Source of the DNA: Methanosarcina sp. ERenArc_MAG2
GTDB taxonomy: Archaea > Halobacteriota > Methanosarcinia > Methanosarcinales > Methanosarcinaceae
Assembly: GCA_023955635.1 (NCBI GenBank)
Contig: JAMXHR010000010.1
Location: 372,001-436,000, forward strand
DNA length: 64,000 nucleotides
Direction: 5' to 3'
Positions 39,634 to 57,507 of this stretch are shown in pieces. The first letter of the stretch is position 1. Each line of letters begins with the position of its first letter. The notes beneath the pieces were generated by a model. That model did no database searches, was not told the origin of the DNA, and saw only the letters and a list, made by a program, of their open reading frames with translations. Made by a program: the position numbers and the translations under genes.

Positions 39634-40965
39634 ATGTATGATCTATTTAATAAAAAGTTAGACGATCTAGTTTTTGACGATTTATACGATTTGATTGAAA
39701 ATGAAGTTAAAGAAGGTTTTTATGTTGAGTTTAAAAGCGATTTTCAAAAAGGTCAACATATCGCAAAATCACTAGCTTCTTTTGCAAATACTCACGGCGG
39801 ATGGTATTTCATAGGAGTGGCTGATGAAGATAAAACAAACATAGCAAAAGATATAGTTGGGTTTGATATCAAGAAGCATAACCAGCCTCAAGAGTCTATT
39901 CGTCAAATATCTAGAGAACATATACATCCGGTCCCTTTTTTTGAAATGAAACTTTTAAAAAGTAGTGAAGAGAAATATGTTTTAGTTATTTTTATTCCAG
40001 AAAGTTTCGAAACTCCTCACATTTTAAGTGATGGAGTTGTTTATTTACGTAATGGAGAAGAATCCAATCCAATAAAAAATGGTGATAAATACACTCTTGA
40101 TAAATTATATCAAAAAAGTTTATATTTAGAATCGAAATTAAATAGTTTTTTGAAAAATCCTTTTGGGGTCACATATTGGGAAGAAAAAGAAGAAATTCCA
40201 TTTTTAAATGTGTGCCTTTTACCCACGAATTTTAATGAGTTGGAATTCAAAGACTTTTACGAAGATTTCTATCTTGAAAAACTTATTGAAATGATTAATC
40301 ATGAAGAATATTTGTTCGATAGTGAAAGTGGAATTACTTTTAATAGTTATTATAAAAGCATTACTCGAACCCCTCATTCAATTATTTTTAGAGATGTGTC
40401 GAATGGGATTAGCTCTCGTAACCAGACTTTTGAACTTTTCTACAATGGAGCTGCCAGAATAAAAATTCCAATCCCTTATACCATTATAGAAACACCCTTA
40501 AGCGAAAATAATTCGCAAACTCCTTGTATAAAACTTCTGTATCAAAAACTTGGAGAAAATCTTAGTCAATGCAAGCTTGTGGACATTGGTTCCATGCTTT
40601 TTAGTATTACATGGACAGTTAAAAAATACTCAAGATTTATTAATGATAATATGAGTTCTCAGACCAATACGCTTTCAATATTTGAAATGGAGAACATTTT
40701 TCAATTAATCCCATTTGTTGAGTCTGAATCTTTTATAGAGCATGCGGAAAAGTATAATGTGCCTATATCTATGTATAAATATAAAAAAGTCCCTGACGAA
40801 TTAAGTTCAAAAAGATGGATTGAATTAGAAAAATTAGATAATCTTGAGTTTAGGATTTTGGATGCCTTTAAACTGGTTTTAGGTTTACCTGTTGATACAA
40901 AGATTTTCTCTGATTCTCTTATACATTTTATAGAAAAACATAAGAGTGCTGTAGAAAGTCCATGA
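39634..40965 (+). CDS. AlbA_2/Schlafen-type putative nucleic-acid-binding protein
   Basis: The product is 443 aa. The N-terminal ~150 residues carry the AlbA_2 signature: YVEFKSDFQKG, AKSLASFANTHGGWYFIGVA and DGVVYLRNGEESNPI. Schlafen-type AlbA_2 domains bind or cut RNA/DNA and occur in phage-defence and stress proteins. The remaining ~290 residues (acidic, beta-rich) are not recognised and may sense a trigger. The gene is very AT-rich compared with 27-38 kb, consistent with transfer. It is the first gene of the accessory region. Confidence 0.82.
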   Translation: MYDLFNKKLDDLVFDDLYDLIENEVKEGFYVEFKSDFQKGQHIAKSLASFANTHGGWYFIGVADEDKTNIAKDIVGFDIKKHNQPQESIRQISREHIHPVPFFEMKLLKSSEEKYVLVIFIPESFETPHILSDGVVYLRNGEESNPIKNGDKYTLDKLYQKSLYLESKLNSFLKNPFGVTYWEEKEEIPFLNVCLLPTNFNELEFKDFYEDFYLEKLIEMINHEEYLFDSESGITFNSYYKSITRTPHSIIFRDVSNGISSRNQTFELFYNGAARIKIPIPYTIIETPLSENNSQTPCIKLLYQKLGENLSQCKLVDIGSMLFSITWTVKKYSRFINDNMSSQTNTLSIFEMENIFQLIPFVESESFIEHAEKYNVPISMYKYKKVPDELSSKRWIELEKLDNLEFRILDAFKLVLGLPVDTKIFSDSLIHFIEKHKSAVESP

Positions 40966-41719: not shown

Positions 41720-43177
41720 CTATAATTCAACCCTTTTAAACGAAAAGGATTCATATTCTTTTATTATGAAACTATCTGTCATACCGGCTACGTAATCCCA
41801 AATTAAACATTTTTTGGCAATAGATTCTGAGTCACTTAATCCTAATTTTTCTCCAAATTCTAAACCAGATTGATATGATCTCTTTAGATGAGGTCGCAAC
41901 CAACTGTCAAATATATTTAAATTAATTTCGTTTCCCGTCGAAGATAGTGCTTTATACAAAATCTCTGCAAGCTCGTCACACATTTCTTTTCCTTTTAGAT
42001 CCCACCGGGCTATATCTTTCATATTTGTTGGTATTTTTTCATAAGTCTTGAATATATCATCTAAGCATTTTAAGGCGTCTTGAATATTAGGTTCCATGGA
42101 TAATTGTTTACTTAGTTCCAGTAAACCTTCAAAAGAGCCCGTATAATATTGTCTTAGGTAATTTAAGCGATCATTTTCATCTATATTCCATATATAGTGA
42201 ATAAAGTTTCCAACTATAGGTATAGATAGACTCAAAATAAGCTTTGTATACGTTCTTTCAACTTTCATAACTAGAGAATTGTCATTTAGTGCATCCTCTA
42301 AAGTTTTTGAAAAAGTTTGATATATATCAATTAAGTTAAATTCTTCCATTTTTTGTCTACATAGTTCATTTAAAAGCGTATCTTTTACCTTATTATAAAA
42401 GTTTAACATTTCACTAAAACTTGTTAGACGCCTTAGATCTTCGATGTCATGAGAAAATTGAGCAATTTCATCAGCTATTGAAACTATAGTCCCTTCTAAG
42501 GTTATAGGAGAACAATAATCAAATAAAGTTTTCATTGTTTCGTATGAGTCTTCATTAATTCTAGTGTTGCCTGCACTAGCTTCCATAAATACTGGATAAT
42601 AGCTTTCAAAGCATTTTTTATAAAATTCTCTATCCGATTCTTCAATTTTTGAGTGTTTCAGGATCCCATCTAATGTAGATAAAGTTAGATTTAAACCATA
42701 GTAATCTGGATAATATTGTTTTTCAAGGAAACAGCAGATTTTAAGACTTTGAAAGCTATGTTTGAGTTTTTTCTCCGGAAAACTTCCATGAGCTTCACCA
42801 TTCTTTAAAAAATCGCATAATGATCTCTCCCCAACATGTCCGTAAGGTGTGTGCCCTAGATCATGCCCTAAAGAAATTGCCTCAATCAAATCGATATTAA
42901 TTTTTATTTTTATTTCATTTTGTAGGTAATTCCCGATGGAAGATGCTATTTGCATAACTTCTAGAGAATGTGTGAGTCTGCTTCTTATGTGGTCACTAGT
43001 TTTTAATCCTGAAACCGTAACGACTTGTGTTTTCCCTGCCAATCTCCTGAAAGATCTTGAGAAAAGTATTCTATCTCGATCATGAAGATATTCAGATCTA
43101 TGATCAAAATCAGTACTTGTTTCGGCTATTAGTCTAGATTGGAGGTTTTCAAAACTAGTTTTGCTCACATTCGCCAT
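41720..43177 (-). CDS. dGTPase-like HD-domain triphosphohydrolase
   Basis: The product is 485 aa. HD-domain metal ligands: RSRLTHSLEV, SLGHDLGHTPYGHVGE and ADEIAQFSHD; FSRSFRRLAGKTQVV is the dGTPase N-terminal signature. These enzymes split dNTPs to nucleoside and triphosphate. In defence settings they deplete dNTPs during phage infection. The gene is AT-rich and lies between two related MITEs in a region with other conflict genes, so a defence role is plausible but inferred. The start at 43177 is an ATG-like Met before ANVSKTSFENLQSR; no clear ribosome site was seen. Confidence 0.9.
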   Translation of the reverse strand: MANVSKTSFENLQSRLIAETSTDFDHRSEYLHDRDRILFSRSFRRLAGKTQVVTVSGLKTSDHIRSRLTHSLEVMQIASSIGNYLQNEIKIKINIDLIEAISLGHDLGHTPYGHVGERSLCDFLKNGEAHGSFPEKKLKHSFQSLKICCFLEKQYYPDYYGLNLTLSTLDGILKHSKIEESDREFYKKCFESYYPVFMEASAGNTRINEDSYETMKTLFDYCSPITLEGTIVSIADEIAQFSHDIEDLRRLTSFSEMLNFYNKVKDTLLNELCRQKMEEFNLIDIYQTFSKTLEDALNDNSLVMKVERTYTKLILSLSIPIVGNFIHYIWNIDENDRLNYLRQYYTGSFEGLLELSKQLSMEPNIQDALKCLDDIFKTYEKIPTNMKDIARWDLKGKEMCDELAEILYKALSSTGNEINLNIFDSWLRPHLKRSYQSGLEFGEKLGLSDSESIAKKCLIWDYVAGMTDSFIIKEYESFSFKRVEL

Positions 43178-43436: not shown

Positions 43437-45715
43437 TCAAGTTAACTGCTTAATAATGTCTTCTCTGTCTTTCAGTAATAAATAACCTTTAATTTTTCGA
43501 GCTAATCTTTCCGGAAGCTTGGATAATTTGGTAATGTGCTTCCCCTTTATTCTTATTAAATCGTCCTTCAGTTCCGCATAAGAAATTTCCTGCAAAGGAA
43601 TCGTAATTTTGTGCATTGCACCAGTGCCTAAAATTTCAGTTCCTACAGAGATCTCAATTTCTTCTTTTATACCAGGTTTCAGAGAGATAATCACATAATC
43701 CACTTTTTCCTTTATCTCCTCAATATCGTTTTTAAGCTCATCCACTGTTTGTTCCATGTATAATTTAGGAATCAATGGAATAATAGTAGATATGATCCCA
43801 TATTGCTTGGATATATCTTTTTGTTTTCTGATTTGTTGAATTCTATTGAAAATATACTGATTCTCTGGTATTCTTGGGACGCTCGATTCTAAAGTAAAAA
43901 TCAAGTTTTCCAGATTAAAAGCCATTTCTTCCTGACTGCTGATTTCCCATCTTTGGATTTCTCTATTAATAGTGTATGCAATTTCTTCTGTAACAGTCCC
44001 TCTAGCTTCCTTGCACGCAATCTTTGCTTTCTTTTGAATCTCTTCGAGAAGTCCTTTTAGATTTCTGTCCAGTATAGGCAGCCCTTTTCTCATTGCTATT
44101 GTTGCGAAAGGTGCTTTTTCTTCACTATCTCTCATGAGTTCTGCTGCACGATTACAATATTGTCTATAAAAATTGAGCTCGCTTTTTTTGCCTCTAAATC
44201 TAGATTTTCTAGATTTTGGACTTCTTTTAGTGCATTTGCAAGGTTCTCCACAGCCTCAAAGAGCAATTTTTTGCTTTTTGAGTCTTTAACGGCATTTTTT
44301 GCTTCAGAAAGATATTTTTCCACCTCTTCTTTAGCTTCCTGGTTTCTGAAGACTATTGTATGAAAAGAACTGTAAAAAGGAAGGCAAAATTGAGACGGAT
44401 TAGATAATAAGTATTTAGACTCCTGTGCTGCTTTTTCAAAAAACTCAATTGCTTTTTCCAATTTTTCTTTGTAATCTTCTTCTTTTTCTGCCTGAGAAGC
44501 CTCGAATATAGAAACTTTTCCAAGAGAATGGTTTGATTGGGACCTCACAAGAATGTCTTCATCATTGGTCAGTCTATGTAGGTCATTAAATGTCTGTTGT
44601 TTATCTGGCACTTGAGAAAACACAGAACCAAGAGCAGAGGCAACCCTATACCTCACATACCTGTCTTCATCGATGGTCAGTCTTATTAAATCATTCCATG
44701 CTTGTTGTTTATCTGGCACTTGAGAAAACACAGAACCAAGAGCAAAGGTAGCACTATACCTCACATCACTGTCTTCATCACTGGTCAGTCTATGTAAGTT
44801 ATTCCATGCCTGTTGTTTATCTGGCACTTGAGAAAACACAGAACCAAGAGCAGAGGCAACCCTTTTCCTCACATCACTGTCTTCATCATTTGTCAGTCTA
44901 TGTAAGTCATTAAACGCCTGTTGTTTATCAGGCACTTCAGAAAAAACAGAACCAAGAGCAAATGTAGCACTATACCTCACAAAATGATTTTCATCATTGA
45001 TCAATATAAGTAAATCATTCCATGCCTGTTGCTTATTTGGGACTTGAGAAAAAGCAGAACCAAGAGCTTCAGCAGCTCTTTCCCTCACAAAGTGATCTTC
45101 ATCGATGGTCAGTCTTATTAAATCATTCCAAGTCTGTTGTTTATCTGGCACTTGAGAAAAAGCAGAACCAAAAGCTTCAGCAGCTCTTTTCCTCACATCA
45201 CTGTCTTTATCATTTGTCAGTCTATGTAAGTCATTAAATGCCTGCTGTTTATCTGGCACTTGAGAAAACACAGAACCAAGAGCTTTAGCAATCCTTTTCC
45301 TCACAAGACTGTCTTCATCATTTGTCAGTCTATGTAAGTCATTAAATGCCTGCTGTTTGTCTGGTACTTGAGAAAACACAGAACCAAGAGCAAATGTAGC
45401 ACTAGACCTCACAAGACTGTCTTCATCATTAGTCAGTCTATGTAAGTCATTAAATGCCTGTTGTTTATCTGGCACTTGAGAAAAAGCTGAACTAAGAGCT
45501 TCCGCAGCCCTATATCTCACATCACTGTCTTCATCATTAGTCAGTCTAAGTAAATCATTCCATGCCTGTTGTTTATCGATATGAATGAGAAGAAATTCGT
45601 TAATTGCTCTAACTCATGTATACGCTGTTGTGGATCATCGCTTAGACATTGATTGTGAATTTTCTTTTGGTCGACCAACTGCCAAACACCATAAAATCAT
45701 ATCAAGTTGGTGCTT
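43437..45715 (-). CDS. HEAT-repeat protein with helical C-terminal domain (apparent frameshift; degraded 5' end)
   Basis: At least nine near-identical 36-residue HEAT repeats (pattern VRxxAAxALGSxFSQVPDKQ followed by QAxNDLxRLTNDEDS) precede a helical segment (EKAIEFFEKAAQESKYLL, VENLANALKEVQNLE). The frame breaks at seven T on the plus strand (44183-44189). One added base joins EAKKSELNFYRQYCNRAAE to the C-terminal ~230 residues, ending in EEIEISVGTEILGTGAMHK and ELKDDLIRIKGKH. The 5' end aligns with the start of the neighbouring HEAT gene (GVWQLVDQKKIHNQCLSDD) but has a TGA and a frame change, so the start is lost or misread. HEAT arrays are protein-binding scaffolds. Function unknown; paralogous to 46220-48752. 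Confidence 0.75.
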
Positions 45716-45753
45716 AAAAGTTTTCCTGTTCGGTTTATAAGATACAGATTTCT

Positions 45754-46239
45754 CTATTCCTGTTTTTCGTTTGCAAGCTCGTATCTAAGTTCATTTAAGA
45801 AAAAAAGACTGGTTATTACATCGTAAGTTGAAGACAAAGAAAAAATCAATATAACTAAACCTAAAGCAAAAAATATTCTTTTTTGAACATCTATAAAGCT
45901 AGGAGACAACTCAGTATCGTAAATTACATAAACAACATTTGATAAAACAAAACTGAAAAAGATTATTTTCGCATCTAATTTTGTATTTTTTATAAATTCA
46001 AGGAAAACGTCTCTCTCTTTATTTTGAAAATTTGCTTTAAGTTGTAATAAATCTCTTGAACTCAACAAACCGAAAATAATTGCAAGACTAGCAAGTATAC
46101 CACTAAGCAAAATACCTAGTAAATTTGGTAATAAGGATAAATATTTGATTTCATTACTCAAGGGTATAAAAAAAGCCAAGGCTATAGAAGCTATTATTGA
46201 AATAACTATTAGTATAATATCATTTTTTGAGTTTTTCAT
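45754..46239 (-). CDS. Four-TM membrane protein, candidate effector partner of the HEAT/RexA-like protein
   Basis: The product is about 161 aa. Four hydrophobic segments: IILIVISIIASIALAFFIPL, LLPNLLGILLSGILASLAII, IIFFSFVLSNVVYVI and IFFALGLVILIFSLSSTYDV. A charged loop (KANFQNKERDVFLEFIKNTK) separates the second and third. ATG 46239 lies inside the end of the upstream gene (20-bp overlap), so the two are translationally coupled. Size and topology resemble RexB, the ion-channel partner of RexA in lambda abortive infection. The resemblance is structural only; I see no sequence proof. Confidence 0.7.
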   Translation of the reverse strand: MKNSKNDIILIVISIIASIALAFFIPLSNEIKYLSLLPNLLGILLSGILASLAIIFGLLSSRDLLQLKANFQNKERDVFLEFIKNTKLDAKIIFFSFVLSNVVYVIYDTELSPSFIDVQKRIFFALGLVILIFSLSSTYDVITSLFFLNELRYELANEKQE

Positions 46240-48752
46240 CAGTAGGATCAACCAATAGTGAGTTTAGATTTAAATCGGTAAATACCCTTTTAACTTCTTC
46301 AGGAGTGAAGTTTTCAAATGCTATTGATGTCTCTAGTTTTTTCATACATTCATCTTTTTTACTGCATATTGTTATCTTTTTATTCTCACCCCATTTGATT
46401 CCCCTTAATTTCCATACTCCTCCACCTTTTGTGATCCATTCGAGTGCTTGATTCAAGAATTTATCATTTTGAGATATTTGTAATTTCCCTACATTGTTTG
46501 AAAGTTTATGAGTTAAAGTTGTAACATTATATGGTCGATAATAATTTAACATCTCTTTCATATTTTCTTGTGTATGCCCTAAAAAGTTAGGCATATGCAT
46601 TTCAAAAGTTATATCATACAGCTGCTCAAAACTACTAACAGTCTTCCAAAAAACATCTTTTCCGGTTAATGGTTCGATGTAAACAATATATCCATATTCA
46701 TTTAATAAATTATTTAAATGTTTTCCAATTTGTTTAATTAAAGACTCGTAGCTTCTGGAAATATATATATCTACTTCTAATAATATTAATTGGTGGCTAC
46801 GATTCCAAAGAAAATGTACGTAAGGATAAGCTTTATGTTCTTCATCTATGAATTTTACACGCTGATTATTTAGAGTTTGTACTGTTGAAATACTCCAAAT
46901 GTCGCCACCTAGCAACTCCTTTTTACTTCCAAAAATAAAATTTCCAAAATGCAATAGAGGTTCTTTCTTGTTCTCTGGAATATATTTACGATTTTCCATT
47001 AATTGTTTTTCAGCTAGTTCTATAGCGGAGCCATCAAATTCTTTTTTTATTAATCTTCCTTGAGTAGAAGAGACAAAGGAAAGCAAAGCAACGTAAAAAT
47101 TCAGGCCATCTCCCTGCCTTTCCTGTATAATAGAGCATTCAATTTCTTCAATAGCAGTTCCTTGAGATGTCTGACACACCGTCTTTGCTTTTTTTGGATT
47201 TCTTCAATAAGCCTTTTTATATTTCTATCCAAAATAGGTAGCCCTTTTCTTAGAACTTCTGTATCAAACGGAGCTGTTTCATCAGTATCTTTCATCATTT
47301 CTACAGCATGATCAAAGTATTTCCTATAGAAATTAAGCTCACCTTTCATCGCCTGCAAATCTAGATTTCCCAAATTCTGGACTTCTTTTAATGCTTCTGC
47401 GAGATTTTGAACAGCTTCAAAAAGCTGTTTTTTGCTCTTTGAGCCTTTAATTGCAGATTCAGCTTCTCCCAGATATTTGTTCACTTCTTCTCTAGCTTCT
47501 TGTTCTTTAAAAATTATTGTATAAAATGAGCGATAAAAAGGAAGACAAAATTGAGCCGGATTATAGTAAGATACTTCCTTTGCTGCAGTTTCGAAAAATT
47601 CTATTGCCTTTTCTAATTCTTTTTGTAATCTTCATCTGTTTCTGACTGGGAAGCCATGAATATTGAAGCTCTTCCAAGAGAATGATTTGAGGATGATCTC
47701 ACATTACTGTCTTCATCCTTGGTCAGTCTAATTAAGATGTTCCATGCTTGTTGCTTATCTGGCACTTGAGAAAACAAAGAACTAAGAGCTTTGACAGCAC
47801 TTTTCCTTACATCAAAATTTTCGTTATTGGTCAGTCTAAAAAAGTCATTCCATGCCTGTTGTTTAAATTCGTCTGGTACTTGAGAAAATGAAGAACCAAG
47901 AGCTTCAACAGCCCTAAATTTCACAGAGATGTCATTATTTGTTGTTAGTTTAATTAAGTCATTCCATGCCTGTTGTTTAAATTCGTCTGGTACTTGAGAA
48001 AATGAAGAACCAAGAGCTCCAACAGCCCTAAATTTCACAGAGGTGTCATTATTTGTTGTTAGTTTAATTAAGTCATTCCATGCCTGTTGTTTATCAGGAA
48101 CATAGTAAAATGCTTGATTGAGGGCGGAAGTAGCACCAAACCTAATATTAACGTCTTGATTACTGGTGAGTTTAATTAAGTCATTCCATGCCTGTTGTTT
48201 ATCTGGCAGTAACGAAAAATCACATCTTAATACCATTAGCACTCGGAGACACTCTTTCGGATTATCGCTAAGAAGTTGATTGTGAATTTCCTTTTGATCT
48301 ATCGTTTGCTCAAGAGTTCTATTAAATAAACCATCCCACGCCTGTTGCTTATCTTGGGCATGAGGAAACGCAGAACCAAGAGTATCAGCAGCAATAGACC
48401 TCACACTACTGTCTTCATCATTGGTTAGTCTATGTAAATCATTCAATGCCTGTTGTTTAAATTCATCTGGCACTTGAGAAAACAAAGAACTAAGAACTTT
48501 GACAGCACTATACCTCACGCTCCATTCTTCATTATTAGTCAGTCTAAGTAAATCATTCCATGCCTGTTGTTTATCCTGTGTGGATGAGAATAAATTCTTT
48601 AATTGCCTTGATATATGCATAAATCCTTTTAAATCATCCCTCAGATACTGTTTGTAAATTTTTTCGTTGTCGACCAACTGCCAAACACCACAAATATAAT
48701 AAAAGCTAATGGTTAAAAATTTTCCTTTTTGGTTTTCAAGAATAGAGATCAT
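46220..48752 (-). CDS. HEAT-repeat protein fused to a RexA/DUF4747-like C-terminal domain (two apparent frameshifts)
   Basis: The N-terminal ~360 residues are HEAT repeats of 36-38 residues (SQVPDEFKQQAWNDLIKLT is duplicated). The frame breaks at five T (47620-47624) and at seven T (47189-47195) on the plus strand. Adding one base at each gives YKKELEKAIEFFETAAKEV and EIQKKAKTVCQTSQGTAIEE and a single protein of about 844 aa. The last ~300 residues begin LNFYVALLSFVSSTQGRLIK and contain VIYIEPLTGKDVFWKTV, ITFEMHMPNFLG and TLTHKLSNNVGKLQIS. That pattern (paired alpha/beta halves, FW then PN then a SNNxGxL step) is what I associate with RexA/DUF4747-type abortive-infection proteins. The paralogue at 43437 has the same scaffold but a different C-terminus, so the C-terminus looks like a swapped effector or sensor domain. 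Confidence 0.72.
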
Positions 48753-48859: not shown

Positions 48860-49120
48860 CTACACTTCATCCAGGTATCTCTGCAGCTTATCCGCAAGTT
48901 TGCCAATATGAATACCATCAACAAATGCATGATGAACCTGGACTGCAAACGGCATCAGAAATTTGCTTTCTCTTTCATGATATTTTCCCCAATCAAATAT
49001 GGGTTGCGCTTTTTCCCTGTTTCCGAAATCCGTGTGCGAAATATGCGTAAACGTTATCCACGGAAAGGCTGAGAATTGATATACATCGTTTTCTACAGGT
49101 CCTGTAAAATATAGCGGCAT
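48860..49120 (-). pseudogene. C-terminal fragment of a chloramphenicol acetyltransferase-type enzyme
   Basis: Contains the active-site motif HHAFVDG and FSAFPWITFTHISH of CAT-like trimeric O-acetyltransferases, ending KLQRYLDEV. About 86 of the usual ~210 residues are left. The 5' half is cut off about 35 bp from the start of the integrase gene, so this point is a likely junction of an integrated element. Confidence 0.8.
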
Positions 49121-49154: not shown

Positions 49155-50516
49155 ATGAAAATTTTCTATTTAAAGCAGGACTTTACTGTACAACAATGGC
49201 TTGAGATAGTAAATATTAGGGAAAACACAATAAATAGTTACCTACTTGGTATGCAAGCTTACACTGAGTTTACTAATAAGAATCCTGAACAATTGCTAAA
49301 CGAAGCCGATAAAGAACAAGACGATAACATAAAAGTCAGAAACAGGGCTGTAAACAAATATCTGTATGGATTCAGGAACCACTTGCAGCAACAAGGACTT
49401 GCACCACTAACAATTAAAAATTATATTAATGGTGCTAAATCATTCTACAGGGCTTTCGACATTGAATTTAAATCAGTTAAACAAGAGGGAGTCACTGTAA
49501 AACAAGAAAACAGGAAAATACCAACTATTGAGGACATCAGGGACGTTTTGAAAGTCTGTGATCCTTTTGAGAAAGCGTTAATCTTAGTTGGTTGCAGTAG
49601 CGGACTAGACGGAAGCACAATCTGTAATATTACAGTCGAACAGTTTAAAAAAGGGTATGATTCCAAAACTGGCATAACTACTTTAATTTTGCGAAGACAA
49701 AAGACTGATGTGGACTTTGTAACTTTTTTAACTCCAGAGGCTTCTGAAGCTGTTTGGAACTATTTGAACTACAGAGCAAGAACCGTAGACACTACATTAA
49801 AAAACAGATTAGATCAACTTGCAAAACAAAAGGTTTATGCGGACACTAACTATCTGTTTATCCTCAGAAAAGTACATGTTGACTTTCTCAAAGATTTTGA
49901 CGAAGAGAAGCGAAAGATTAATAGATCTCCTTTAATGAAAATCTACCGTGAAATCTCCACAAAAGCCAATAAAAGTACAGAAAAAGGTAAATTTAACTAT
50001 ATACGCTCTCACAACTGTCGTAAGTTCTTTGATAGTACAATGCTCAATAATGGATGTGACTATCTCCACACAGAAGAGTACATGGGCCATGCTCTCCCAG
50101 GTACACAAGGACATTATTTTACACCTAATGTGGATGAATTAAAAACATACTATACTAAATTTATACCTTACTTGACAATTCAGAAAAAGCTAAATGTTAG
50201 TGAGTCTCCTGAATATCAAAGTATAAAAAGTGAAAATGATATACTCAGAGCAGAAACAGCTAAGCATGTTGTAGAGAGAAGCGAATTAACAGAATTAAAA
50301 GCAGAAATGGATAGAATAAAAGCAAGGGAATTAGAAGTTGAATATAATAAACAAGAGATTCAAAAAGCACTAGCAACTTTACATTCTACACCACTGCCAG
50401 AACTTGACCCAAATGCAACATCAGAAGAACGAGAAATGTATCAAAAAATGCTCAGTAAACACTATGAAAACCAGTCATATCTAAAGGCTATAAAAATGAT
50501 GGTCGATATGAAATAA
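49155..50516 (+). CDS. Tyrosine recombinase/integrase with C-terminal coiled coil
   Basis: The product is 453 aa. An N-terminal SAM-like core-binding domain (NTINSYLLGMQAYTEF, NHLQQQGLAPLTIKNYINGA) precedes the catalytic domain. Visible catalytic residues: RSHNCRKFF (HxxR) and EEYMGHALPGTQGHYF (late His and the nucleophilic Tyr). The first catalytic Arg, usually in a TGLRxSE motif, is not evident: the matching stretch is GCSSGLDGSTICNI with Asp instead. Either the Arg is supplied elsewhere or the enzyme is altered. A C-terminal coiled coil (ENDILRAETAKHVVERSELT) follows. GAGAGG precedes the ATG. It abuts the truncated acetyltransferase, as expected of an element integrase. No attachment site or tRNA was found. 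Confidence 0.85.
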   Translation: MKIFYLKQDFTVQQWLEIVNIRENTINSYLLGMQAYTEFTNKNPEQLLNEADKEQDDNIKVRNRAVNKYLYGFRNHLQQQGLAPLTIKNYINGAKSFYRAFDIEFKSVKQEGVTVKQENRKIPTIEDIRDVLKVCDPFEKALILVGCSSGLDGSTICNITVEQFKKGYDSKTGITTLILRRQKTDVDFVTFLTPEASEAVWNYLNYRARTVDTTLKNRLDQLAKQKVYADTNYLFILRKVHVDFLKDFDEEKRKINRSPLMKIYREISTKANKSTEKGKFNYIRSHNCRKFFDSTMLNNGCDYLHTEEYMGHALPGTQGHYFTPNVDELKTYYTKFIPYLTIQKKLNVSESPEYQSIKSENDILRAETAKHVVERSELTELKAEMDRIKARELEVEYNKQEIQKALATLHSTPLPELDPNATSEEREMYQKMLSKHYENQSYLKAIKMMVDMK

Positions 50517-51191: not shown

Positions 51192-53153
51192 ATGGCTATG
51201 AATCAGACAAAGTTTATAGAATGCTGTGAACCAAGAATCCGATGTTTAGCAGGTCCTGGCACTGGTAAAACGTGGTCAATCAAGCAGAGAGTTAAAAGAT
51301 TATTGACCCAAGACGGAATAGAAGGTTCAAGAATATTTGCTGTAACTTTTACAAAACTTGCGTCACAACAGTTAAAAACTGAATTAACGGAAATGGAAGT
51401 TAAAGGCTCTGATGCCATTGTCGCATCTACTCTTCACTCTCACGCCCTTCGTATTTTAAACCATGAACAAGCAATTGAGAGCTTAGAAAGGGTTCCTCGC
51501 ATCTGCTATGAATATGAAATGAAACCTCTTTCTGCAGATTTAAGTATGGCATTTGAAGGGCGAATCAAACCCGTAGATGCCCTTTTCAAAAAATTTGAGA
51601 CTATGTGGGCTCGAAATCAATACGAGATAATACGTAGTGCTTCAAAGCCTGAAGAGATAATTTTTGAAGATGAATATCAATCTTGGATGCGTTTTCACAA
51701 TGCAATGACAGTTAAGGAGTTAATAACGTTAGCAGTTAAGTTCCTTAAACAAAATCCCATTAATGATGCTGTTTCTGAGTTTGATCACATAATTGTAGAT
51801 GAGTATCAGGATCTTAATTGGGCAGATCAAGCGCTGATTGAGTTAATCGGTAAGGATTCGAAAATTGCAATCTTAGGAGATGATGATCAGTCAATCTACT
51901 CCTTCCGTTATGCTGATCCGGATGGAATAAGGATTTGGTTATCGCGTCAAGAAACTAGAAAAGAGGATGTTCAATTAAATGTATGCAGAAGATGTGATGG
52001 AAATATAATCTCTATAGCAAATTCGTTGATAAGAAACAATAGTGGCAGAGGGGAGAAAAAGAATCTAGTCTCTGAGGAAGATAGAAAGGACATTGGAGAT
52101 GTGAATTTAGTTCAGTGGAACACGAGAGAACAAGAGACTAAAGGTCTTGCTTTAGGAATCAAAAAGCTATTGGAGAAAGACATGGTCCCGGTAGGCGAAA
52201 AAATACTCGTCTTAGTTCCGAGAAGAGATTTTGGGCAATACTTAGTGAAAGAACTTGAAAAACTCGGAGTAGTGGATGTTAACCTCCACACTAAACCCGA
52301 TTGGGAAAATAAAATTATGGGTGAGAATTTATCACTTCTAATATTACATGAAACTCCAGATGACCTTGTCGCACTTAGATACTATTTGGGATTAGGACAT
52401 GATAAATGGAGAAAAGTTGAATATAAAAAATTACGCCAATATTGCCAAGAAAATGATCTGGAACCTTGTGATATCCTAAGTAATCTTGAGTTATGTAACA
52501 AATTACATGTTAGTGGCTTGCGAAAGAGATGGGAAGAACTCCAAAGTAAACTAGAAGAGATATCTGATGTAAATCAAGATGAATTGCTTGATTTACTTTT
52601 GCCATTGGAGGGACCTACAAAAGAGATTTCTGAAAAAGTTAGATATATGAAACAATTTGATACAGAAAATAAAAATATTAAAGATTTACTTACTGAAGCA
52701 ATTGTTTCTATTGGAGAGGAAACTGATAAACATAAAGTGAACATTATGACTATACATGGAGCTAAAGGGCTAACTAGTCATACTGTGATATTAACAAGTC
52801 TTATCAATGGACTATTGCCTAGAAATCCCAATCCTAAGAGTAATGACGATATATCAAAATTTGAAGAAGAAAGAAGGCTGTTATATGTTGGATTAACTCG
52901 GGCTAAACATAGATTAGTTTTTTCTTCTTTTAGAAAAATCAAATCTAGTGAGAGTCAAATATTAAATTTATCACTTAATAGCAGAGATCGTTATTGCAAT
53001 ACAACCTCAAGTAAATTCATTTCAGAGTTCAGTCCAGATATTCTTCCGGTTTTAGCTGGTGATAAGTGGTTGTTTTCGTTTGATTCACATAAAGTCTTAG
53101 AGGTTGTCTTAAAATTCAAACCATTTCTACAATTGGATAATAAGCAACATTAA
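51192..53153 (+). CDS. UvrD/Rep-family (superfamily 1A) DNA helicase
   Basis: The product is 653 aa, intact. Helicase motifs in order: CLAGPGTGKTW (Walker A), AVTFTKLASQQLK (Ia), ASTLHSHALRI, IIVDEYQDLNW (Walker B), ILGDDDQSIYSFR (III), MTIHGAKGLTSHTVI (V) and EEERRLLYVGLTRAKHRLVF (VI). It is shorter than housekeeping UvrD and resembles solitary or GajB-like helicases of defence islands; no OLD-type GajA partner is adjacent. The last ~17 residues (VVLKFKPFLQLDNKQH) are encoded by a MITE (53101 onward), so the native C-terminus was replaced. Confidence 0.9.
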   Translation: MAMNQTKFIECCEPRIRCLAGPGTGKTWSIKQRVKRLLTQDGIEGSRIFAVTFTKLASQQLKTELTEMEVKGSDAIVASTLHSHALRILNHEQAIESLERVPRICYEYEMKPLSADLSMAFEGRIKPVDALFKKFETMWARNQYEIIRSASKPEEIIFEDEYQSWMRFHNAMTVKELITLAVKFLKQNPINDAVSEFDHIIVDEYQDLNWADQALIELIGKDSKIAILGDDDQSIYSFRYADPDGIRIWLSRQETRKEDVQLNVCRRCDGNIISIANSLIRNNSGRGEKKNLVSEEDRKDIGDVNLVQWNTREQETKGLALGIKKLLEKDMVPVGEKILVLVPRRDFGQYLVKELEKLGVVDVNLHTKPDWENKIMGENLSLLILHETPDDLVALRYYLGLGHDKWRKVEYKKLRQYCQENDLEPCDILSNLELCNKLHVSGLRKRWEELQSKLEEISDVNQDELLDLLLPLEGPTKEISEKVRYMKQFDTENKNIKDLLTEAIVSIGEETDKHKVNIMTIHGAKGLTSHTVILTSLINGLLPRNPNPKSNDDISKFEEERRLLYVGLTRAKHRLVFSSFRKIKSSESQILNLSLNSRDRYCNTTSSKFISEFSPDILPVLAGDKWLFSFDSHKVLEVVLKFKPFLQLDNKQH

Positions 53154-56620: not shown

Positions 56621-57507
56621 GAGCGTGTCTTAATATTCCTTTATCATCCGCTTGATTTTTTTATACGAGCCAGTCTTCTAATCATTATATGAAGCATTGC
56701 AGCATATATTAATGCTTGACTTGATTCTGTTAATCCTTCATAATCTTTACTCAAACGTCGATATCTACCTAGCCATCCAAATGTACGCTCTACTACCCAT
56801 CTGTGAGGAAGTACCTTAAAACCTTTGATGTCATCGCTACGCTTTACGATTTCCAACATCCAACCACAAACTACTTTGACCCAATCAACCAGTTGACCGG
56901 AATAAGCAGCATCAGCCCAAATAAGCTGCAATCGAGAAAATTTCCCCTTAATTTGTTCCAGAACAAGTTTAGCTCCATCTCGATCCTGGATATTTGCTGT
57001 ATGAACTATAACTATCAACAGTAGCCCTATTGTATCCACTAGAATGTGGCGCTTTCTCCCTTTTACTTTCTTGGCAGCATCATAGCCGCGTACTCCTGGC
57101 GTTTCTGTAGTTTTAACTGACTGGCTATCTAAAATTGCAGCACTCGGTTCTGGTTTTCTTCCATATGCAATTCTCAGTTCAGTTCTCAGTGTAGCATTTA
57201 TACGTTCCCAAAATCCAGTAAGTCTCCAAAGACGGAAATAGTGGTAGACAGTTTTCCACGGTGGGAATTCGTGGGGTAACATTCGCCATGCACAACCCGA
57301 ACGTAGCAAATAAAAGATGGCGTTCAATATTTCTCGATAGGAATGAACGCGTTTTCTACCTCGATTCGTGCTAGGACTGGGGAGATGAGGCTTAATTATT
57401 TCCCATTGTTTATTAGATAAATTACTATGATAAGGAGTTCTTTTATTTTGTTCTGGCATGAACGAACAATCAGTGTGTCAAGGATTATATAATTTTAAGA
57501 CACGCTC
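56621..57507. mobile_element. IS5-family insertion sequence (887 bp)
   Basis: Perfect inverted ends GAGCGTGTCTTAA and TTAAGACACGCTC, with TA on both outer sides as a 2-bp target duplication. It contains one intact transposase gene. It has separated the ABC-3C CTD gene from whatever lay upstream. Confidence 0.9.
56644..57459 (-). CDS. IS5-family transposase (intact)
   Basis: The product is 271 aa. DDE-type catalytic core: AAILDSQSVKTTETPGVRGY, GRKRHILVDTIGLLL, LIWADAAYSGQLVDW and RWVVERTFGWLGRYRRLSKD. The N-terminal GRKRVHSYREILNAIFYLLR with GCAWRMLPHEFPPW is the HTH region of the IS402/IS1031 groups. The frame is complete in one piece, unlike most IS5 genes that need a frameshift, so the element may be active. 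Confidence 0.95.
   Translation of the reverse strand: MPEQNKRTPYHSNLSNKQWEIIKPHLPSPSTNRGRKRVHSYREILNAIFYLLRSGCAWRMLPHEFPPWKTVYHYFRLWRLTGFWERINATLRTELRIAYGRKPEPSAAILDSQSVKTTETPGVRGYDAAKKVKGRKRHILVDTIGLLLIVIVHTANIQDRDGAKLVLEQIKGKFSRLQLIWADAAYSGQLVDWVKVVCGWMLEIVKRSDDIKGFKVLPHRWVVERTFGWLGRYRRLSKDYEGLTESSQALIYAAMLHIMIRRLARIKKSSG

What the first reader, a model, noticed from the sequence alone, without database searches (positions are those of the whole stretch)
45754..48752. Candidate new defence module: HEAT-repeat scaffold fused to a RexA-like domain, coupled to a 4-TM protein
Seen: after repairing two homopolymer breaks, 46220-48752 is one ~844-aa protein with HEAT repeats and a C-terminal ~300-residue domain. 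The next gene is a 4-TM protein whose ATG lies inside it. Known: lambda RexA (sensor/activator) and RexB (4-TM channel) form an abortive-infection pair. Inferred: here a HEAT array could act as a sensor for the RexA-like part, which then triggers the membrane effector. I know of no described RexAB system with a HEAT sensor fused on.
Basis: partly seen in the sequence, partly recalled or inferred. Interest (0 to 1): 0.88.

Follow-up and report, generated by a model that had tools for sequence, protein, structure and literature searches.

The report
Archaeal RexAB-like pair fused to HEAT repeats
In a methane-producing archaeon, a two-gene module resembling phage lambda's RexA and RexB anti-virus pair has taken the place of the tail of a repeat-rich protein whose relatives carry other, swappable tails, which suggests, but does not prove, an immune receptor that trades effectors.

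Summary
The anatomy is real. Minus strand, in gene order: a HEAT array with a conserved linker; a ~295-residue domain in frame with the linker's last residues; an overlapping four-helix membrane protein. Two single-base losses at A-runs split the HEAT part (probably assembly errors); the joint to the C-terminal domain is not split. That domain matches no curated family above cut-off and not lambda RexA by sequence, but its predicted structure (pLDDT 61) has lambda RexA (8TWQ) as top PDB match, the only one under E 0.001. Relatives are free-standing genes; in all 20 testable loci (window included, about 14 independent) a hydrophobic gene follows. So this is a RexAB-type module, also in other archaea, E. 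coli prophages and a Vibrio phage. The HEAT fusion was seen only in this genome. Its context is the surprise: the HEAT-linker family (42 of 111 genomes of the window's family) has varied C-termini, including a nucleosidase matching a PADLOC defence-effector model, and they differ between species at one chromosomal site. Best reading: RexAB was captured as one more effector of a receptor-like family. Rival: accidental insertion, with RexA still started on its own. New variant of a known kind; function untested.

The parts
47613..48752 (-). HEAT1: HEAT-repeat array (ORF of 379 aa)
   Evidence: HEAT_2 E 9.1e-22; repeat units 108-114 nt
47105..47612 (-). HEAT1: helical linker, profile columns 1 to 131 (about 145 by eye) of 190; split by a single-base loss at an A-run near 47195; its junction with the array is split by another near 47620
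   Evidence: three-frame translations; family alignment A5; linker match E 9.5e-66, columns 1-131
47104..47128 (-). Joint between HEAT-linker homology and RexA-like homology; a CTG stands at the relatives' start-ATG position, with an AGGGAG Shine-Dalgarno-like stretch just upstream
   Evidence: start regions of the window and eight relatives; HEAT1/HEAT2 repeat D8 ends at 47128
46220..47104 (-). RexA-like domain (~294 aa)
   Evidence: relatives; model and fold matches; 14-member alignment
45754..46251 (-). 4-TM RexB-like membrane protein (ATG at 46239, overlapping the upstream gene)
43437..45742 (-). HEAT2: downstream tandem paralogue with linker and small C-terminal domain, also frame-broken by apparent single-base losses
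   Evidence: repeat families D4, D5, D6, D8; its 232-aa C-terminal piece is 80% identical to part of an unbroken 792-aa open frame in G013

Best explanation
The locus is a RexAB-type phage-exclusion module captured by a member of an archaeal HEAT-linker family with exchangeable C-terminal effectors. Shown: a predicted RexA/RdgC-like fold, a downstream 4-TM partner, an in-frame joint to the HEAT linker, and C-termini that differ among HEAT-linker proteins, even at one orthologous chromosomal site. Inferred: the HEAT array recognises a viral protein or complex; binding frees or clusters the RexA-like domain (by analogy a dimeric, non-specific DNA clamp), which opens the RexB-like channel; membrane integrity is lost, growth stops and infection aborts. 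Fusing the array to RexA would give the module a new trigger.
For: Fold: Foldseek against 350,542 PDB chains gives 8TWQ chain B first (E 1.6e-4, prob 0.99, the only match under 0.001) and 8TWQ chain A second; VIA lists CENP-N (rank 1), RdgC 2owy (9), RexA 8twq (12) and Iml3 4it3 (28); RdgC, IML3 and CHL4 are RexA relatives named in PMC11077077. Architecture: of 27 loci examined, all 20 with an intact RexA-like ORF and sequence beyond it (window included, about 14 independent) have a hydrophobic gene within -38 to +126 bp on the same strand, including distant ones (L014, L124). Context: in the three E. coli records viewed the pair sits between a prophage-type integrase and icd (32 of 5426 genomes hold it); another pair is in a Vibrio phage annotated with a PM2-like capsid protein. 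Modularity: C-termini after the shared linker include PNP_UDP_1 (Pfam E 5e-22; PADLOC 'PN-superfamily Effector' E 7.6e-20) in 6 of 90 ORFs, coiled coil plus a hydrophobic helix, and a small domain; at one conserved site they differ between species. HEAT1's linker shows no sign of decay: mean pN/pS 0.38 (11 comparisons) against 0.34 among other members (55 pairs).
Against: Model confidence is modest (pLDDT 61) and TM-scores to 8TWQ are low (0.25-0.27); VIA Z values are under 8 and tied with unrelated folds such as a TATA-binding protein and Aha1; the E. coli relative's model failed (pLDDT 41). No sequence-level link to lambda RexA or RexB. The fusion is in one genome, needs two single-base corrections to join the array to RexA, and lacks the last part of the linker that the PNP- and TM-tailed relatives keep. 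RexAB-like sequence was found in 1 of 80 HEAT regions examined. No function was tested.
Confidence: 0.55

Rival explanations
1. Accidental capture: a mobile RexAB-type cassette landed in the 3' end of a tandem HEAT gene. RexA is still made on its own from the CTG (or the upstream GTG), and the HEAT1 remnant is not part of the system.
For: Relatives are free-standing genes with their own ATG (and the eight shown); the CTG lies exactly at that position with an AGGGAG motif upstream; the joint falls inside the linker, not at its end; as sequenced, the HEAT frame ends at a TGA that overlaps the CTG; only one genome among those searched has the arrangement.
Against: The joint is in frame with the ancestral HEAT frame; there are no further stops in the HEAT1 pieces; linker pN/pS is like that of other members. 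CTG starts are rare (recalled).
Confidence: 0.33
2. The HEAT-linker proteins are not immune receptors but scaffolds or housekeeping proteins, and the RexA-like domain is a DNA-binding part used for something else (for example RdgC-like recombination control).
For: RexA and RdgC share a fold and RdgC acts in recombination and replication restart (PMC11077077); the commonest C-terminal domain of the family is unknown; I know of no HEAT-linker protein with a tested defence role.
Against: Constant linkage to a hydrophobic gene, prophage and phage carriage, a match to a PADLOC effector model in sister proteins, exchange of tails at one site.
Confidence: 0.2
3. The locus is a decaying pseudogene cluster: both HEAT genes are broken by real mutations.
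For: Several single-base breaks lie in the two HEAT genes; a transposase and a cut gene are in the neighbourhood.
Against: Breaks are single-base losses at or near short runs; the HEAT genes of this genome on C14 and C2 look split too, while most listed relatives are open; ORFs are short in samples of this genome (median 202 against 281 aa); among printed rows four ABC domains are cut in this genome and none in two relatives; the rexA-like and 4-TM ORFs are intact.
Confidence: 0.15

Closest known systems
RexAB_pp (PP_5643-5644) of Pseudomonas putida prophage P1, PMC12894663
   Same: Two adjacent prophage-type genes, a predicted RexA-fold protein and a predicted 4-TM membrane partner; there too BLAST gave no functional clue
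   Different: There RexA is free-standing; here it is fused to a HEAT-linker protein in an archaeon. Its sequence was not compared here.
Phage lambda RexA/RexB (Pfam PF15969/PF15968; PDB 8TWQ)
   Same: Predicted fold of the C-terminal domain, gene order, hydrophobic partner
   Different: No detectable sequence similarity; lambda RexA (279 aa) carries no HEAT array
RdgC / CHL4-IML3 (CENP-N/CENP-L) fold group
   Same: Matches in the same structural searches
   Different: Not coupled to a membrane gene and not defence systems (recalled)
HEAT-linker-PNP proteins (for example L069 2066-5536, 1156 aa)
   Same: Same HEAT array and linker; effector-like C-terminus (PADLOC PN-superfamily Effector)
   Different: Nucleosidase-type tail within one gene, instead of RexA plus a second membrane gene
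NTPase conflict systems with swappable effectors (eLife 2020, PMC7159879; three passages seen)
   Same: Repeats and exchangeable effector domains; a few archaeal occurrences, such as Methanosarcina mazei
   Different: No NTPase domain showed in the HEAT-linker pieces scanned (lists capped at 25 rows, full-length relatives not scanned with Pfam)

Membership tests
RexAB-type exclusion system | RexA/RdgC-like two-domain fold in the first protein | tested here: met
   Foldseek top PDB match 8TWQ, E 1.6e-4, prob 0.99; RdgC, RexA and Iml3 listed. Caveats: pLDDT 61, Z under 8, low TM-scores; a second model, of the E. coli relative, failed
RexAB-type exclusion system | Adjacent gene for a membrane protein with about four TM helices | tested here: met
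   Window gene has 4 hydrophobic segments; all 20 testable loci, window included, have an adjacent hydrophobic gene (crude hydropathy, 2-5 segments each)
RexAB-type exclusion system | Non-specific DNA binding by the RexA protein | not testable with these tools
   needs a gel-shift assay
RexAB-type exclusion system | Abortive infection through membrane damage by RexB | not testable with these tools
   needs phage or virus challenge
Lambda RexA sequence family (Pfam PF15969) | Sequence match to the family | tested here: not met
   No PF15969 hit at E<=1 for the window protein nor at E<=0.1 for four relatives, while lambda RexA itself hits at 1e-97; hhalign probability 0.5-0.7%
Lambda RexB sequence family (Pfam PF15968) | Sequence match to the family | tested here: not met
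   No hit for the window protein nor for three relatives, while lambda RexB hits at 8.5e-92; hhalign probability 0.1%
   No hit at E<=1; no profile-profile or fold comparison with DUF4747 was made
HEAT-linker family (defined here, alignment A5) | HEAT array followed by the conserved helical linker | tested here: met
   HEAT_2 E 9.1e-22; linker columns 1-131 of 190, E 9.5e-66
HEAT-linker family (defined here, alignment A5) | Complete linker (190 columns) before the variable C-terminus | tested here: not met
   Homology stops at column 131 in the profile match, about 145 by eye

The most novel reading that the evidence does not exclude
HEAT-linker proteins are an undescribed family of archaeal intracellular immune receptors, apparently without an NTPase domain: closely similar, fast-changing HEAT repeats read the invader, a fixed helical linker transmits, and the C-terminal effector (nucleosidase, membrane helix, a small unknown domain, or here a whole RexAB relay ending in a separate channel protein) is exchanged by recombination at fixed chromosomal sites. 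The window caught a transfer of the phage-borne RexAB module into that receptor family.
Probability: 0.33. Interest if true: 0.85.

Novelty: new variant of a known kind. Interest (0 to 1): 0.6.

Why it matters
RexAB was discovered about seventy years ago and how it is activated is still unknown (PMC12894663, Discussion). A RexA fused to a repeat array, if functional, would separate the trigger from the relay and make the question testable by swapping arrays. RexAB-type pairs in archaea would widen a system that, by that paper's count, has been described five times. A receptor-like family with exchangeable tails in methanogens that can be manipulated genetically (recalled for Methanosarcina) would be a new handle on archaeal immunity.

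Tried and rejected
Sequence routes to RexA: hmmscan against Pfam, PADLOC, PHROGs and NCBIfam (for the window; 44, 45, 107 for relatives), phmmer/hmmsearch against the PDB and hhalign gave no RexA or RexB match. Only weak rows came up: PHROG 32558, unknown function, E 0.01, for the window RexA-like protein; Pfam PRA1, E 0.0013 but under its cut-off, for the 4-TM gene of L018; PADLOC MTase_II, E 4.4e-4, on the linker piece. I count none of them. In two of the three hhalign runs against RexA the weak best alignment runs through a shared G-x-x-V-x-I-E-P-L stretch; I do not count that either.

Dropped rows: L125 (profile match at E 9e-4) is DnaG primase, a false positive. L022, L023, L027 and L030 end at the rexA stop and cannot be scored for a partner; L013 and L029 have broken or cut rexA (both do have the hydrophobic gene). 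L005 (E 0.003) was not followed. In one search I took the wrong domain hit for several proteins; one search replaces it.

Searches for a second HEAT-RexA joint: an exact 26-base pattern in viral contigs, 0 hits; blastn of the whole locus in plasmids, no match; genome contigs with the single protein, none. Viral-contig scans with two relatives found nothing; one with lambda RexA found only close lambda relatives (11 loci).

Considered and rejected: DUF4747 (no Pfam hit); a PD-DEXK or LmuA relation of the HEAT part (those PADLOC hits fall on the query's HEAT repeats); the 4-TM gene downstream of cut HEAT genes in five genomes as another RexB-like partner (408-505 bp away, not compared further).

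Literature on HEAT-linker or HEAT-RexA proteins: searches showed nothing on topic in their listings (held open-access library only); that is not proof of absence. Apart from PMC12894663, PMC11077077 and PMC7159879 all papers were seen only as listings.

Full report
WHAT IS THERE. The minus strand between 48752 and 43437 holds, in order: HEAT1 array (47613-48752), its linker, a RexA-like domain (46220-47104), a 4-TM gene (45754-46251, ATG at 46239 inside the previous gene), and HEAT2, a tandem paralogue (43437-45742). HEAT repeats are genuine (Pfam HEAT_2 E 9.1e-22 for HEAT1 and 1.2e-56 for the long piece of HEAT2) with units of 108-114 nt; of the eight other HEAT2 copies of a 300-nt repeat block, seven are 80-86% identical to the reference copy and one 66%. 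HEAT1 and HEAT2 share their N-terminal region and linker at 72-77% DNA identity; HEAT1 homology stops at 47128 and RexA homology starts at 47104. The ORF 46220-47179 carries both sides of the joint without interruption, so that joint is in frame as sequenced.

NAMES.

THE FRAME BREAKS. HEAT1 is split twice and HEAT2 at least twice, each time consistent with one lost base at or near a short run. The genome has 18 contigs and is 87.6% complete, probably a MAG. In ten 20-kb samples its ORFs are shorter than in ten samples of the relative G013 (median 202 against 281 aa; fraction in ORFs of at least 250 aa 0.40 against 0.57). Among the ABC-transporter domains printed, four are cut or hold stops in this genome (C2:442785, C13:6080, C10:136062, C17:290545) and none in G013 or G015; not all rows were printed, so this is a partial count made by eye. 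My attempt at a direct orthologue test found one shared gene, unbroken, and says little. The other HEAT genes of this genome, on C14 and C2, also look split, whereas most listed relatives have open frames of 400-1300 aa. I therefore think the breaks are mostly assembly errors; this is an inference.

WHAT THE C-TERMINAL DOMAIN IS. No curated model matches above its cut-off. Relatives exist: G096 (42% identity), G091 (40%) and G052 (22%); Vibrio phage PQ189321 (29%); E. coli CP099174 (20.5%); more through the profile. The profile search finds it in 4 of 111 genomes of the window's family, 6 of 392 sampled genomes of the phylum, and 4 of 369 in the class of L019, of which one is a false positive. 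In its genus only the window's genome has it (none in the 29 others searched). The eight relatives compared begin with ATG where the window has CTG. The AlphaFold2 model (9 sequences, pLDDT 61, pTM 0.54) gives 8TWQ, lambda RexA, as Foldseek's first and second PDB matches (E 1.6e-4 and 0.029, prob 0.99 and 0.57); nothing else is below 0.001. The VIA second look has CENP-N, a TATA-binding protein, Aha1, RdgC, RexA and Iml3 at Z 7.4 down to 5.4. The RexA structure paper (PMC11077077; abstract and sections 18-19 read) names RdgC, IML3 and CHL4 among RexA's structural relatives; that CENP-N is the counterpart of CHL4 is recalled. Z values below 8 can arise from common arrangements, and unrelated folds score as well here, so I lean on Foldseek's isolated top hit plus the recurrence of the RexA group. 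In the viral library four uncharacterised phage proteins match at E 1.7e-10 to 3.3e-7 (best TM 0.60). The model of the E. coli relative failed (pLDDT 41), so the fold rests on one model.

THE PARTNER. Of 27 loci examined (window included) have an intact RexA-like ORF with sequence beyond it, and all 20 have a hydrophobic gene right after it (gap -38 to +126 bp; 2 to 5 hydrophobic segments by a crude scan, the 2 in L011 on an ORF that looks cut). Several are near-identical (L007, L024, L025, L026, L028, L206, L207, the E. coli type), so the independent number is about 14. In the three E. coli records viewed the pair lies between a prophage-type integrase and icd; 32 of 5426 E. coli genomes hold it. 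This is the layout of RexAB_pp of Pseudomonas putida, where phage protection, DNA binding by RexA and RexB-dependent membrane damage were shown and the folds were predicted (PMC12894663; abstract, section 8 and Discussion read, other passages seen). That paper counts five RexAB-like systems; the word archaea does not occur in its main text.

THE HEAT-LINKER FAMILY. A linker profile (A5) hits 42 of 111 genomes of the family. From 80 fetched regions I took 90 distinct ORFs, pieces of split genes included: 54 fall in one cluster of tails that mixes a small domain (which I call beta-type by eye; no structure was predicted) with coiled-coil and hydrophobic tails, so it is not one clean type; 6 carry a PNP_UDP_1 nucleosidase (Pfam E 5e-22 for the one scanned; PADLOC 'PN-superfamily Effector' E 7.6e-20 and 8e-20 for the two scanned; that this model stands for CBASS effectors is recalled); 14 have tails under 20 residues; the other 16 have short, coiled or hydrophobic tails. 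At the site between a tRNA nucleotidyltransferase (cca) and a DNA glycosylase (ogg) (gene names recalled from the sequences, not from a call), eight genomes have a HEAT-linker gene between both flanks (L061, L063, L066, L068, L069, L126, L128, L143); its tail is a PNP domain in L069, a long tail with a hydrophobic helix in L126, and the small domain or other in the rest. RexA-like or RexB-like sequence occurs in 1 of the 80 regions, the window's own. HEAT1's linker evolves like that of the others (94 codons, mean pN/pS 0.38 against 0.34), although most of that divergence may predate the fusion.

MECHANISM. Shown: the anatomy, the pairing, the structural match (one modest model), the variety of tails. 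Inferred by analogy with lambda and P. putida: the RexA-like domain senses or relays and the 4-TM protein breaches the membrane. Speculative: the HEAT array provides the trigger. Against a purposeful fusion: the joint lies inside the linker and a CTG with an AGGGAG motif remains at the old start, so RexA might still be made alone.

NOVELTY. A RexAB-type pair is a known kind; its archaeal occurrence and its joining to a HEAT-linker protein are not in the papers that my searches listed (held open-access library only). It is not filed under the lambda RexA/RexB sequence families, because those tests were not met.

Noticed in passing
window 41720-43177 (-): HD-domain protein matching the PADLOC dGTPase model (E 1.1e-62), directly downstream of HEAT2: a possible dNTP-depleting defence gene.
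   Followed up: no
window 51192-53153 (+): UvrD-type helicase matching GajB models (E 1e-49); no GajA-like neighbour was looked for.
   Followed up: no
window 39634-40965 (+); 48860-49120 (-); 49155-50516 (+); 56644-57459 (-): Schlafen/AlbA_2 protein, C-terminal remnant of a chloramphenicol acetyltransferase family gene, phage-type integrase, IS4/5-type transposase: mobile or defence island character.
   Followed up: partly
L070 5945-6199 (window's genome, C14): A HEAT-linker-PNP gene of the same genome is interrupted by a stretch of about 250 bp with inverted GCAGGTCGAC-like ends, perhaps a MITE.
   Followed up: no
L160, L162, L165, L166, L168: In five genomes of the window's genus the HEAT-linker protein ends near linker column 102 with a conserved short tail, and a conserved 145-153-aa gene with four hydrophobic segments lies 408-505 bp downstream.
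   Followed up: partly
L006 2178-3543 (Vibrio phage PQ189321): RexAB-type pair near the start of a 13-kb Vibrio phage record classed as Vinavirales, with a gene noted as like the PM2 capsid protein.
   Followed up: partly
L013 (G359) 1277-2353: Archaeal copy with a broken rexA-like gene but an intact hydrophobic partner gene.
   Followed up: no
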